This document shows positions 14,482 through 19,438 of a stretch of 64,000 bases of DNA, in pieces. Below the pieces are notes generated by a model. It made no database searches, was not told the origin of the DNA, and saw only the letters and a program-made list of their open reading frames with translations. Each line of letters begins with the position of its first letter. Within the stretch, counting starts at the first letter, position 1. A program made the translations under genes and the position numbers. The stretch comes from Hansfordia pulvinata (taxonomy: Eukaryota; Ascomycota; Sordariomycetes; Xylariales), in NCBI GenBank assembly GCA_006538405.1, contig BJKQ01000001.1, positions 1,116,001 to 1,180,000 of the forward strand, in the 5' to 3' direction.

Positions 14482-17400
14482 TCAAGGCCAACCCCCGCGA
14501 ACGGTAGGCACTCTCGCTGCGTCACGGTTCCCGACGGCAGCAATTGACCCGTGCCCGAACGGTGCGAGCTGCTCGTGCGCGACTGCGAGGTACCATTCTG
14601 TTGTTTTGGGATATAGATGAGCAGATGGAATGCTACCCATCAACGCGAAGCCCGTCAACGCGCCGTGCTGCTCCAAGAGGGTCTTTGCAAATGCGCACTC
14701 ATTCCTTCCAGTCAACGCTTGGTCGAGGGCCGTGCAGCCATCAACGTCGGTCTTGTTCACCTCCACACCGGCGTTGATCAAAATCTCCAGCAACCCGTGA
14801 TGTCCCTCAGCAGCGGCTTGATGTAGAGCCGAGAACCCAAAGGAATCCACGGCGTTGACGTCTGCGCCAGCATCCACAAGAGCCGTGACCGTCTCGGTAT
14901 CCCCCAGCCACGATGCACGCAGGAGAGGCGTGAAACCCTCGTTGTCGGATAAGTCGAGCCCGCTTTTGTCCTCCATGAGCAGCTTAGCACCAGCATGGTT
15001 TGAGTGTCGCACAGCCTGCATGAGGGCTGGCATCCCGTCATCGTCCCGAGCCTTCATGTTCGCACCGGCACCCTTGAGCAACTTGAGTGCCGTGGCACCA
15101 GCAGACTTCGCGGCGTAAAACACCGCTGTCTGGTCTTCTTCATCTTCTGCCTCGAGGTCTGGGTTGTCATCCAGGAACAGCTTGATCGTAGCCGCGTTGC
15201 CGCTGGCGCACGCTTCCATCAGACCCGTTCTTCCGTCGAGGGCTCGTGCCCACCAGTCCGCACCGGCGCGCTTCAACAGATTGACTGCGGCGGCGTGGCC
15301 GGACCTCGCGGCAAGCAGCACGGCAGTTTCTCCCTCATCGCCGCCTCGTGAGTCAAGCTCTGCGCCAGCATTGATCAGTGCTTGCATTGAAGCGATGTCA
15401 CCTACATGTGAGGCGATCATGAGAGGTGTCCACCCGAATCGGCATCGCGTCTCCAGGTTCGCCTTGCGATTGATGAGCCACTTGACTACGGCCGGGTCAC
15501 AATATTCCACAGCCAAGTGTAAAGCTGATTCGCCATCGTGACGTCTGATTTGCACATCTGCATGACTCTCAAGGAGAAGTTTCACGGTGTCCTGATGACC
15601 GCCTTCGGTTGCGCAGATCAGTGGTGTCCGGCCGCAGCGATCTTGAGGGTTCACGTCGGCCCCTTCCTGTAGTAAGATCCAAAGCGTGGACGTATTCCCT
15701 TGCTCTGCAGCATGTAACACTGGCGTGTTACCGTAGTTGTCTTTGTGGTTGAGAAAACAATTGAAGGAGTCGAATCCCGACGGCGGCCAGTGTGGAAAGT
15801 CCCTCTGTGCTCGGGCAATGATCTCTCGAACAATAGAGTCGTAGCCCCCCAGACTGGCGTAAGACAGGGCCGATTGCTGACGGCGTCCGAGGATATGTAA
15901 TACTGCCTCTAGACCTTCATCACTTGCCACTATGCAACTGGCCGTCTTTTCGAGACCGAACAGTAGTGCGAGGATCAGAGGCCTATGTTCAGCATCCGAT
16001 TCATCGTCACAGTAGCGACCGAGCGGCCAATTTAGCTCGCGGCGCCTTTTGAAACGACGAGGGAACCAGAAACGATTGTTGTCGTATTTGAGAAGTTCGG
16101 AGGCAAGAAACTGGAGACTTTGAGACGGTATGCCGCGAGCTTTTCGGAGGTGATCTATCCAATAGTCTGAAGCATATTGATGAAGAACAAAGTCATGGAC
16201 GTCTGACATGGACTCGTCGTCAGAATCTCCACTGTCCATTTTCCCAGGCGAACTCGACATCTTGACATCATCAAGATGAAGATATTGAATGCATTTTTCA
16301 GACATCAAGCTGTGCATTTGTTCCTCGTGGAATCTGTGCATCCACGTCGAGCCAGCACGAGCACTGGGAAGGTCATTATTGGGCTGAACGAGGAATTCTC
16401 GTGCTGTCTGATGGATCAGATAGATTCGCTCGTCTCTGACATCAATGAAAAGTCCGCAGACGGAGCGAAACGTCTCTTTCAGTCGGTCATTATACCCAGT
16501 CGGGAAAAGCCCACGAACAAGATCCTTATGTGTCTCGTGCTTCTCGTCCAGAGACAACATGATGGCCATCTCTTGAAGAGAAAGCGGTCTCTCTGCAGCA
16601 AGGACAAATTGCAGTATCTTCTGCGCCTTATCGCGGTTGCTGCTCTTACTGAGGATCTTCTCGTATGCTTCTTCAATGCTGGTCGGTAACTTCTCAATGT
16701 TCGTGCTCAACTCGGGCATATTGATGAATGTGGGATCTTGATCGATTGATTCCAAGATCAGGTGAGCCCAGAGGTATGTGCGGTTCTCAACTTCAAGAAG
16801 CTTGTTGGCAAGAAGGTCGCCAGATTGTTCGTCCAGCCCCAGTCTTTTCGACAAATCTTCCGCGCGCTGGCGAATGACGACCCTGATCTCCCTCGAGATC
16901 TGCTCCTTCTCCGTGTCGTTCTCCCCGCTGAGATGGATCTCGGGATGGTTGCTGGTAATCTTGGCGAATTGAAGTCGGGTCCTATTGTACGGGCGGCTGG
17001 TGACAAGAAACTTGAGTGCGGGCTTTTGTGCTCTTTGACCGAAATGGCTGGTTAATGCACTCACGAGGACCGAGTGATCAACGCATTCATCGAGTGCATC
17101 GAGTATGCAAACGATCTGCTCGTCGTGGCGGCTTGCCGCCTGGACGAACATCGTCCAAAGACCACTGAAGGAGGAAAATAACTTGGTGCCCTTGTTTTCG
17201 AAGTCGTGAAGGACAGAAGGGGAGATGAGGTTGGGCCTCTGGCAGAATAGCTGGTGCAGCAAGCCGCACAATGCATTCTCTGGGGTCCTTTGGTCTTCGA
17301 AATCGTCCTTGAAGAAGAAGTAACACATCGTTGGAGGTTTGGTGCCTAAGAGAGAGCCGCAGTCGACGAGATACTTGGCCAAGACGGATTTGCCACAGCC

Positions 17401-17706
17401 TGGGTCAGCAGAGACCCAAAGCAGTCCGAAGTCATCTTCCAGCCACCTGTTGAAACGAGGATGGGCTGTGAACCATTGACAGGTGCCTTCAGTCCGATCC
17501 GGGTTCCTATCCTTGCGATCGGGGTATGGCGAAGTGCGGGAGTATAACCCCTGGAGAATCTGGGTCTTCAGCTGCTGGACGTGGATCTCCGAGGAGCAAA
17601 TTTGCTTCTCGGCCGTGGACTCTCCATAGTAGTAATAATTGTTGCCGTTTTGCACCTTGGCGTTGTCACTGGCTGTGAGAGCACCGCCAACATTGATAGT
17701 GACCAT
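14482..17706 (-). CDS. NLR-like STAND receptor: HET-s-type amyloid motif, NACHT, ankyrin repeats
   Basis: An intronless frame of 1074 aa from M at 17706 (1096 aa from 17772). Order: an N-terminal amyloid-like motif at residues 11-24 (TASDNAKVQNGNNY) followed by a YYYYGES tail. Then comes a NACHT NTPase with Walker A DPGCGKS at 101-107, Walker B VCILDALDE at 199-207 and a sensor LVTSRPY near 234-240. A winged-helix/superhelical part follows to about 650 (AERPLSLQEMAIML, IYLIHQTAREFLV). Roughly eleven ankyrin repeats run from about 655 to 1020 (NTPVLHAAEQGN, CGRTPLICATEGGH, EGFTPLLRASWLGD, FGFSALHQAAAEGH). Fungal STAND proteins of this plan sense a ligand through repeats, oligomerise by NACHT and nucleate an effector. 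The gene is divergent from the HET-S-like gene at 18546. I prefer M at 17706 because it puts the motif at the extreme N-terminus. The ligand is unknown. Confidence 0.88.
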   Translation of the reverse strand: MVTINVGGALTASDNAKVQNGNNYYYYGESTAEKQICSSEIHVQQLKTQILQGLYSRTSPYPDRKDRNPDRTEGTCQWFTAHPRFNRWLEDDFGLLWVSADPGCGKSVLAKYLVDCGSLLGTKPPTMCYFFFKDDFEDQRTPENALCGLLHQLFCQRPNLISPSVLHDFENKGTKLFSSFSGLWTMFVQAASRHDEQIVCILDALDECVDHSVLVSALTSHFGQRAQKPALKFLVTSRPYNRTRLQFAKITSNHPEIHLSGENDTEKEQISREIRVVIRQRAEDLSKRLGLDEQSGDLLANKLLEVENRTYLWAHLILESIDQDPTFINMPELSTNIEKLPTSIEEAYEKILSKSSNRDKAQKILQFVLAAERPLSLQEMAIMLSLDEKHETHKDLVRGLFPTGYNDRLKETFRSVCGLFIDVRDERIYLIHQTAREFLVQPNNDLPSARAGSTWMHRFHEEQMHSLMSEKCIQYLHLDDVKMSSSPGKMDSGDSDDESMSDVHDFVLHQYASDYWIDHLRKARGIPSQSLQFLASELLKYDNNRFWFPRRFKRRRELNWPLGRYCDDESDAEHRPLILALLFGLEKTASCIVASDEGLEAVLHILGRRQQSALSYASLGGYDSIVREIIARAQRDFPHWPPSGFDSFNCFLNHKDNYGNTPVLHAAEQGNTSTLWILLQEGADVNPQDRCGRTPLICATEGGHQDTVKLLLESHADVQIRRHDGESALHLAVEYCDPAVVKWLINRKANLETRCRFGWTPLMIASHVGDIASMQALINAGAELDSRGGDEGETAVLLAARSGHAAAVNLLKRAGADWWARALDGRTGLMEACASGNAATIKLFLDDNPDLEAEDEEDQTAVFYAAKSAGATALKLLKGAGANMKARDDDGMPALMQAVRHSNHAGAKLLMEDKSGLDLSDNEGFTPLLRASWLGDTETVTALVDAGADVNAVDSFGFSALHQAAAEGHHGLLEILINAGVEVNKTDVDGCTALDQALTGRNECAFAKTLLEQHGALTGFALMGSIPSAHLYPKTTEWYLAVAHEQLAPFGHGSIAAVGNRDAARVPTVRGGWP
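17635..17676 (-). other. Candidate r0 amyloid-nucleating motif in the NLR N-terminus
   Basis: These 14 codons (TASDNAKVQNGNNY) align without gaps to the second repeat of the neighbouring HeLo protein (SASGNASVHIGSNF). The A, S, N, A, V, G and N positions are identical, and S/T and Y/F are conservative. In the described Podospora system, such a motif at the NLR N-terminus templates the effector's amyloid. The function here is inferred. Confidence 0.72.
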
Positions 17707-18545
17707 TCTGGAACGTCGCAAAAAAGAGGGATGTGACAAACGTGACTGAAAGTGCGAGGGACTTGGGAGCATCGACGTCCTATGCGAATGGGCCCTCCTC
17801 GAAACAGAGGGTTTCGCGGGGAGTTGGGGAGTTGGCAGTGGGCCGCACGTAGACTATATCACGACCGCCAATGCCGTATCTTGTAGGCCAATCGTGCTCT
17901 GGAAACCATTTGGGGCCCCTTGACGGCGTTTAGCCTTGCATCCTTGTTGGAAAAGCTGTGGAGACGGGAGGGGCACAGGGCCTACGAGCGACCCCGGATT
18001 CTCGGCCTTCTGACCTGTCATTGAAAAGGGCCCATTCACGATGATGCTCTCGCGTGGAGGGTGAGGGGGGGCGGGGCACTTATCGAGCTTGTCATCGCGT
18101 CGTGTCTGATGGTCCAATGGATCTGCAAAAAGCATTGTGAGGTACCTCCCCCCGGAGCGCTTAACGTTGCGTCCTCGACGTGGAGAGGTGTGGGGGGTGG
18201 CAGGATGCGACGCGCGAGTGGCCTCGGAGCCGTGGCCTCCTGATGCCTGACTTGCCCAAGAATAACTCACGGTCAACGGTAAGGATAAGACCTTCGCGCT
18301 GGGTGAGTGGGGACAAGACGCGAAGGGAGCGTGTGCTGTAGGTGGCCGTTCCGTTGATGTGCTTGGCCTGGTGGTCATCCAGTCCCATGATACGCGCCAT
18401 GGCCCTTCCCGCGGCGTCTATATCTTCGGCCGAGCTTGACCAGGTAAATCCTGTTGCCATTCACGTACCCATCCCTTCTGTGCACTTCCTGATACTGTCG
18501 ACTTTGTTTGCTATTCCCATACCTATTACTTGACCTCTTCAGCAA
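17707..18545. other. Shared divergent promoter region of the NLR/HeLo pair
   Basis: About 840 bases between the two divergently transcribed genes, so a common promoter is possible. No convincing coding frame was found. No TACTCGTA octamer is present. No specific transcription factor site can be claimed. Confidence 0.5.
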
Positions 18546-19219
18546 ATGGCCGAGGTCTTCGGCACCGTGGCCTCGGCTCTGGGCGTAGCAGGCCTGTTCA
18601 ACAACTGCGTCCAATGCTTCGAGTACGTGCAACTGGGCCGTCACCTCGGCGACGACTATGAGCGCTGTCAGCTGAAGCTCGATATCGCCCAGATACGACT
18701 GAGTCGTTGGGGGCAGTCGAAGCTCTGTCCGCCGGTCCGTCGCCGCCTGACAACAAGAAGCAGGAGGCGCAGGAGTTTCTGTCGGAGATTGAATTGCTGT
18801 TCGAACGGGTGCAAAGGGTGTCCAAGCGGTACGAGCGCAAAGCTCGGCCTGGCGAGCTCGTGCTGGCCACCGACACGGACATGCAACCCGTGATTGCGAA
18901 GCTGCACGTCCACCTCCGCGAGCGTGTGTCCCAGCGCCAGAAGGGAACGAGCCTCCTGATGAAAGCGGCATGGGCTCTATACGACAAGAAGGAGCTGGAT
19001 AAGCTGATCCAGGAGATTGTGGGCTTCGTCGGCGATCTCGAGGATCTGTGGCCCGCCGAAGAGGTCCGCCGCCAGCTGTCCCGACAAGACGTGCAAGACG
19101 TCGACGACTCCGGACTCGCAGCAATCCAAGACATTGCCCCTTCCATCGACAGCCTTCTGGTGGAAGCCGCCAGGGGTAAGGGGGTCATACTGGAATCGAA
19201 GAACTCTGGGGGTCGGATC

Positions 19220-19261
19220 GAGGCTGTGGACGACGCTCGCGTGCAGGTCGGCACCAACTTC
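19220..19261 (+). other. Amyloid repeat R1 of the HET-S-like protein
   Basis: Fourteen codons reading EAVDDARVQVGTNF. The core R-V-Q-x-G-x-N is the signature of the first HET-s prion repeat. It lies about 24 residues before the equivalent core of repeat two, with a GIRDRSTNTADS linker, close to the spacing in the family. Confidence 0.8.
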
Positions 19262-19330
19262 CACTACGTGGAAAGTCCTCTGGGCCCGGAGGGCATCAGA
19301 GACCGATCCACCAACACGGCCGACTCGATC

Positions 19331-19372
19331 AGCGCGAGCGGCAATGCGAGCGTGCATATTGGGTCGAACTTC
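19331..19372 (+). other. Amyloid repeat R2 of the HET-S-like protein
   Basis: Fourteen codons reading SASGNASVHIGSNF, followed by GKRDW, the aromatic C-terminal loop position of the HET-s fold. It is the closest match to the NLR N-terminal motif at 17635-17676. Confidence 0.8.
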
Positions 19373-19438
19373 GGCAAGAGAGACTGGGCGGGGCCGCGCG
19401 CCGACACACGCGTATCATTGGCTTGCCAGTTTCCGTAG

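What the first reader, a model, noticed from the sequence alone, without database searches (positions are those of the whole stretch)
14482..19438. Divergent NLR / HET-S-like gene pair with matching amyloid motifs
Seen: a NACHT-ankyrin protein starting with an amyloid-like motif lies head-to-head, 840 bp away, with a HeLo protein ending in two repeats of the same motif and an aromatic tail. Known: in Podospora, NWD2 (NACHT-WD40) activates HET-S by amyloid templating, and the two genes are neighbours. Inferred: this locus is an orthologous or parallel NLR-to-effector cell-death pair.
Basis: partly seen in the sequence, partly recalled or inferred. Interest (0 to 1): 0.92.

Follow-up and report, generated by a model that had tools for sequence, protein, structure and literature searches.

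The report
HET-S/NWD2-type pair with broken effector
In this fungal genome an immune-receptor gene sits back-to-back with a gene for a self-killing protein that carries the same amyloid motif, a known type of fungal cell-death pair, but in this assembly the killer gene's reading frame is broken.

Summary
A NACHT-ankyrin NLR (14482-17706, minus strand) carries a 21-residue HET-s-type motif (r0) at residues 3-23. 839 bases away, divergently transcribed, lie a HeLo domain and two copies of the motif (r1, r2; Pfam HET-s_218-289, E = 1e-12). The three motifs match each other far better than the other 21-mers in the window. In six other species receptor and effector hits lie on contigs of equal length. 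This is a new member of the published NWD2/HET-S (HRAM) family; ankyrin receptors and divergent order are already described. No other HeLo or HET-s-domain match was found in the 46.8 Mb genome. Either this strain has an intact receptor with a recently disabled effector, or the assembly is wrong there. Ordinary as a family member; modestly interesting as a receptor whose only visible effector is broken, the reverse of the Podospora het-s haplotype.

The parts
14482..17706 (-). NLR receptor gene: r0 motif, NACHT (NPHP3_N), winged helix, ankyrin repeats; 1074 aa, one open frame (an upstream in-frame ATG at 17772 exists)
17638..17700 (-). r0: single HET-s-type amyloid motif, residues 3-23 of the receptor
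   Evidence: a profile of relatives' r0 motifs finds it at domain E 1.6e-5
16993..17487 (-). NPHP3_N/NACHT nucleotide-binding domain
   Evidence: ILDALDE (Walker-B-like, name recalled) at residue 201; my strict Walker A pattern did not match, the sequence there reads ADPGCGKS
14722..15711 (-). ankyrin repeats (about residues 666-995)
   Evidence: no DNA-level tandem repeat found
17707..18545 (.). 839-base region between the two divergent start codons
18546..18713 (+). HeLo domain, N-terminal part, reading frame A (56 codons)
   Evidence: PF14479 E 2.1e-23; PDB 2wvo E 3.8e-27
18708..18751 (+). interval in which the effector's reading frame is broken; 44 nt where most relatives have 20 codons
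18749..19108 (+). HeLo domain, C-terminal part, reading frame B
   Evidence: PF14479 E 8.1e-23; PDB 2wvo E 1.9e-31
19190..19375 (+). HET-s_218-289 prion-forming domain (frame B)
   Evidence: PF11558 E 1e-12, 48.3 bits against a cut-off of 32.2; predicted strands at both motifs
19196..19258 (+). r1 motif
   Evidence: domain E 0.027 with the r0 profile alone
19307..19369 (+). r2 motif
   Evidence: domain E 0.0012 with the r0 profile alone
19370..19438 (+). atypical 22-residue C-terminal tail and stop codon

Best explanation
This is a member of the NWD2/HET-S family of fungal amyloid-signalling gene pairs. In the family's model the ankyrin NLR senses an unknown ligand, its NACHT domain oligomerises, and the clustered r0 motifs fold into a beta-solenoid amyloid rung. 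That fold templates r1-r2 of the HeLo protein, which frees the HeLo N-terminal helix to attack the cell's own membrane. Shown here by sequence: the domains, the three matching motifs, the adjacency and divergent order, the conservation in relatives, and the broken effector frame. Inferred from the family: ligand sensing, amyloid templating and killing. In the assembly the HeLo reading frame is broken, so as sequenced the pair would not kill. I hold a real, fairly recent loss and an assembly error to be about equally likely.
For: Pfam HeLo and HET-s_218-289 above cut-off. Both HeLo pieces match HET-S/HET-s structures 2wvo/n/q. Motif scores far above background. A motif of the same type precedes NACHT in 23 of the 120 listed NLR relatives (of 2873 hits) by a strict pattern. 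117 of the 120 listed HeLo relatives (of 239 hits) carry both Pfam domains, counted by eye. In six species a receptor hit and an effector hit lie on contigs of the same length, two with consecutive locus numbers (by eye). The own genome has one HET-s_218-289 match (E up to 1) and HeLo matches (E up to 0.01) only at this locus. 42 fetched regions holding 47 of the 48 other NPHP3_N matches show no convincing r0, and a whole-genome search with the r0 end of the receptor finds only itself. A 121-sequence AlphaFold2 model puts strands at both motifs (block pLDDT 66-92) and Foldseek pairs that part with HET-s amyloid entries.
Against: The effector is not one ORF. r0 and r1 have G at motif position 5 and r0 has N at position 18, where the family pattern is hydrophobic (pattern from PMC4518210). 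No opposite-charge r1-r2 pairs, although 13 of 113 relatives also have none. Atypical tail. Foldseek E-values to the amyloid entries are only 0.07-0.23, and the HeLo matches superpose poorly (TM 0.31-0.35); model pTM is 0.41. By single-sequence search the prion domain reaches PDB HET-s entries only at E 0.05-0.13. Amyloid folding and killing were not tested.
Confidence: 0.87

Rival explanations
1. The sequenced strain truly lacks a working effector: a recent frame-breaking change in the HeLo gene left an intact NLR without its executioner (a natural null allele). This and the next three concern the state of the pair, not its family.
For: 16-nt net shortage, not a multiple of three, in an interval of the same length in 115 of 120 relatives. 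Of 25 enumerated introns (41-140 nt, donors 18640-18730, length fitting the frames), none has a consensus donor (best 4 of 6 positions) and, read by eye, each removes conserved HeLo residues. The second half of HeLo is the second most divergent of 119 sequences and breaks 4 of 31 conserved columns (rank 3); the prion domain is fifth of 117. Tail atypical.
Against: The first 56 residues keep 28 of 29 conserved columns and have ordinary divergence (rank 51 of 118), and no internal stop or second frame change was seen: a real loss would be young. One assembly only. Divergence may simply reflect a distant species.
Confidence: 0.47
2. The gene is intact and the break is a consensus error of the assembly.
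For: The break interval holds a short G run, a common kind of site for consensus errors (general knowledge). The rest of the gene is open, and the part before the break is as conserved as in relatives. Length changes in the same loop occur in 5 of 120 relatives.
Against: The interval differs from most relatives by 16 nt, so a single-base error alone does not account for its length. Neighbouring genes have long open frames, but these were picked from an ORF list, so this is a weak control.
Confidence: 0.44
3. A nascent [Het-s]-like allele: the frame-B part, started internally, makes a HeLo-dead protein with an intact prion domain that could seed an intact allele in other strains (the pseudogenization route to allorecognition).
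For: r1, r2 and their arch glycines remain in frame B. HeLo-dead HET-s and the pseudogenization model are described in PMC10197012 (passages).
Against: No evidence of expression; the first ATG I see in frame B lies well inside the HeLo half (about 18881, read). In Podospora prion-bearing strains it is the receptor gene that is broken (PMC4344463 passages).
Confidence: 0.06
4. The receptor has switched to another effector in the genome.
For: Ten PF17111 (HeLo-like) matches, seven above cut-off, exist elsewhere in the genome.
Against: Six fetched regions covering nine of those matches show no motif above chance with two profiles (best E 0.27, against 8.6e-12 for the window); the tenth lies in a region scanned. 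No other HET-s_218-289 match, and no other r0 or r1-r2 by protein search apart from a 14-bit, E 1.9 match at C9:372980.
Confidence: 0.03

Closest known systems
Podospora anserina nwd2/het-S
   Same: Adjacent, divergently transcribed genes (0.6 kb apart in Podospora; 839 bases here); NLR r0 at residues 3-23; HeLo plus two-repeat HET-s domain; HeLo residue 33 is H, the HET-S (killing) type (H33P described in PMC10197012 passages).
   Different: Receptor has ankyrin, not WD, repeats; effector frame broken here, whereas in Podospora het-s strains it is nwd2 that is a pseudogene (PMC4344463 passages).
HRAM1 (canonical HET-s) subfamily of HET-s-related amyloid motifs
   Same: N at position 3, G at 19, Pfam PF11558 match, repeat spacing, one motif in the NLR and two in the HeLo protein (PMC4518210, parts 1-3 of 5 read).
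   Different: G at position 5 in r0 and r1, and N at 18 in r0.
NACHT-ankyrin / HeLo-HET-s pairs of Xylaria, Nemania, Seiridium and Apiospora
   Same: Same receptor architecture (45-48% identity over the first 330 residues in the six paired species) and same effector architecture.
   Different: The six paired effectors are annotated as continuous proteins of 259-347 aa; Xylaria multiplex P0027 is annotated as one protein merging receptor and effector.

Membership tests
NWD2/HET-S gene pair | Effector with HeLo domain (PF14479) | tested here: met
   Two pieces, 83.6 and 81.7 bits against a cut-off of 23.2, covering profile 1-52 and 70-198 of 205, but in two reading frames.
NWD2/HET-S gene pair | C-terminal HET-s prion-forming domain with two 21-residue repeats | tested here: met
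   PF11558 48.3 bits, cut-off 32.2; r1 and r2 with a 16-residue loop, against 15 in 85 and 16 in 16 of 116 relatives.
NWD2/HET-S gene pair | Adjacent NLR with one r0 copy at its N-terminus matching r1/r2 | tested here: met
   r0 at residues 3-23.
NWD2/HET-S gene pair | Effector encoded by one continuous reading frame (after splicing) | tested here: not met
   Frame break at 18708-18751; 25 candidate introns rejected. May be an assembly error. Lowers 'working member', not kinship.
NWD2/HET-S gene pair | Pairing kept in relatives | tested here: met
   Six species with receptor and effector hits on contigs of equal length, two with consecutive locus numbers (by eye); gene order itself was not seen.
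HRAM1 motif | N3, hydrophobic 5, 8, 10, 16, 18, G19 (PMC4518210) | tested here: inconclusive
   N3 and G19 in all three; position 5 is G in r0 and r1; position 18 is N in r0.
HET-s amyloid | Beta-solenoid fold | tested here: inconclusive
HET-s amyloid | Fibril formation, templating by the NLR, cell death | not testable with these tools
   Needs bench work.

The most novel reading that the evidence does not exclude
A natural 'executioner-null' allele in which the amyloid-signalling NLR stays intact while the HeLo killer is lost, possibly leaving a HeLo-dead prion-domain product that could act as a [Het-s]-like seed: the mirror image of the Podospora het-s haplotype and an early step of allorecognition by pseudogenization.
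Probability: 0.07. Interest if true: 0.6.

Novelty: new member of a known kind. Interest (0 to 1): 0.33.

Why it matters
It adds an ankyrin-type, divergently arranged HET-S/NWD2 pair with a private matching change in receptor and effector motifs (G at position 5 in r0 and r1; in 0 of 26 motif instances from NLR relatives and 0 of 120 relatives' r1), a possible case of concerted motif evolution. If the effector break is real, it offers a natural receptor-without-executioner haplotype for asking what keeps such receptors and what the loss does to immunity and allorecognition.

Tried and rejected
Chance resemblance of the motifs: rejected. Splicing as the cause of the frame change: 25 candidate introns listed, none with a consensus donor and an intact conserved core (donor consensus recalled; introns over 140 nt and donors outside 18640-18730 not tested). 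Backup effectors in the genome: one HET-s_218-289 match, HeLo only here, no SesA match. Other NLRs sharing r0: 42 regions scanned, best match E 0.068 (11.1 bits) in a 29-residue fragment, against 22.9 bits for the window's receptor; one weak NPHP3_N match (C3:2779981) was not covered, and NLRs of other types (NB-ARC) were not looked for. HeLo-like (PF17111) genes as alternative partners: nothing above chance in six regions. Recent hypervariable ankyrin array: no tandem DNA repeat. Loss of r1-r2 charge pairs as a sign of decay: not diagnostic (13 of 113 relatives have none). The five-sequence AlphaFold2 model was too poor to use (pLDDT 46). In the VIA-align table unrelated helical chains score as high as the HET-s entries, and the HeLo entries are not among its 50 rows, which says nothing against HeLo. 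A regex for r1/r2 worked in only 21 of 120 relatives and was replaced by alignment columns. The first effector search found only 4 relatives, the profile search 239, with only 7996 candidates scored.
Full report
What is there. The window is from a filamentous fungus (own genome 46.8 Mb in 63 contigs; no species name was available; the nine best receptor relatives listed are from Rosellinia, Xylaria and Seiridium). On the minus strand, 14482-17706 encodes a 1074-residue NLR with NPHP3_N/NACHT, winged helix and ankyrin repeats. Divergent from it, starting 839 bases away, lies a HeLo gene ending in a HET-s prion-forming domain.

The motifs. r0 (receptor residues 3-23), r1 and r2 (effector) share N at position 3 and G at position 19. 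Their mutual BLOSUM62 scores are 47, 40 and 37; the best other 21-mers among 79,806 in six frames score 23 for r0 and 29 for r1 and r2. A profile made only from relatives' r0 motifs finds the receptor (22.9 bits) and the effector (23.8 bits; r1 alone only E 0.027, r2 0.0012), and the next fragment of the window is at E 0.34. PF11558 matches at E 1e-12. The positions follow the pattern in PMC4518210 (parts 1-3 of 5 read), with two departures: G at position 5 in r0 and r1, and N at position 18 in r0. G at position 5 occurs in none of 120 relatives' r1, nor in their r2, and in none of 26 motif instances found by pattern in the 120 listed NLR relatives. Receptor and effector thus share a private change at a core position, which fits concerted evolution, but it is one case.

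Relatives. 120 of 239 effector hits were listed, 117 with both Pfam domains (by eye); 120 of 2873 receptor hits were listed, and 23 of them show r0 before NACHT by a strict pattern, a lower bound. Six species (Xylaria longipes, Apiospora phragmitis, Seiridium unicorne, Nemania serpens, Apiospora hydei, Apiospora arundinis) have receptor and effector hits on contigs of equal length, which I take to be the same contig; X. longipes and A. phragmitis have consecutive locus numbers (by eye). Five of the six receptors show a full r0; A. phragmitis shows only its second half. Four of the six effectors show both repeats; those of A. phragmitis and A. hydei lack a clean r2. X. multiplex is annotated as one merged protein.

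The effector is broken in the assembly. HeLo profile positions 1-52 are in frame A and 70-198 in frame B. Between the conserved W and D there are 44 nt here, against 20 codons in 115 of 120 relatives (19 in three, 23 in one, 14 in one). No candidate intron tested is acceptable. The first half is under ordinary constraint (28 of 29 conserved columns kept, identity rank 51 of 118 from the lowest), the second half of HeLo is second most divergent of 119 and breaks 4 of 31 conserved columns, and the prion domain is fifth of 117. Decay is therefore slight: a young loss, or an assembly error. The interval holds a short G run. I cannot decide between these without reads.

Uniqueness. The own genome has one HET-s_218-289 match at E up to 1, HeLo matches (E up to 0.01) only at this locus, no SesA match and ten PF17111 matches. 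42 regions of 5.4-5.9 kb, holding 47 of the 48 other NPHP3_N matches, show no convincing r0, and whole-genome protein searches with the two motif ends find only this locus apart from one E 1.9 match. So this receptor's only visible partner is the neighbour whose frame is broken.

Structure. With 121 aligned sequences AlphaFold2 gives mean pLDDT 72.5, pTM 0.41, and strands 161-172, 177-180, 198-209, 214-217, at r1 and r2 with the same layout. Foldseek finds the HET-S HeLo structures (E 1.1e-6 to 1.7e-5, TM 0.31-0.35) and the HET-s amyloid entries (prob 0.92-0.99, E 0.07-0.23). This supports but does not prove the fold, since the predictor may know the HET-s entries.

How it would work. By the published model (PMC5485727, PMC4344463, PMC10197012, passages seen) the activated NLR assembles r0 into an amyloid rung that templates r1-r2, and HeLo then attacks the membrane. 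HeLo residue 33 is H, the killing type. All of this is inferred for the window. As assembled, no complete HeLo protein can be read.

Placement. PMC3321046 (passages) reports adjacent het-S/STAND pairs with variable orientation, and PMC4344463 (passages) reports ankyrin-type NWD2 homologues, a divergent pair 0.6 kb apart in Podospora, 46 of 55 genomes with the adjacent pair, and nwd2 as the pseudogene in het-s strains. The locus is thus a new member of a known kind. An intact receptor beside a broken effector was not seen in the passages I read; my searches on this were narrow, so I do not claim it is unreported.

Noticed in passing
P0201, P0227, P0004 (relatives): Annotated HeLo relatives in Apiospora hydei, A. 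phragmitis and Gaeumannomyces hyphopodioides have a missing or aberrant r2; 116 of 120 relatives have both arch glycines, P0168, P0184, P0215 and P0227 do not. Gene-model errors or repeated effector damage.
   Followed up: partly
P0027 (Xylaria multiplex): One 1543-residue annotated protein holds a NACHT-ankyrin receptor followed by a HeLo-HET-s protein; a merged gene model or a true fusion.
   Followed up: no
own genome C2:268359, C21:215613, C3:563360, C23:256697: Four of 49 NPHP3_N matches have an in-frame stop: some other NLRs here may be pseudogenes or contain introns.
   Followed up: no
own genome C24:127566 and C23:135905: HeLo-like (PF17111) matches with an in-frame stop, on contigs under 300 kb.
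   Followed up: partly
window 17638-17700: r0 has N at core position 18; among 26 motif instances from NLR relatives one also has N there (P0029, Microdochium trichocladiopsis).
   Followed up: partly
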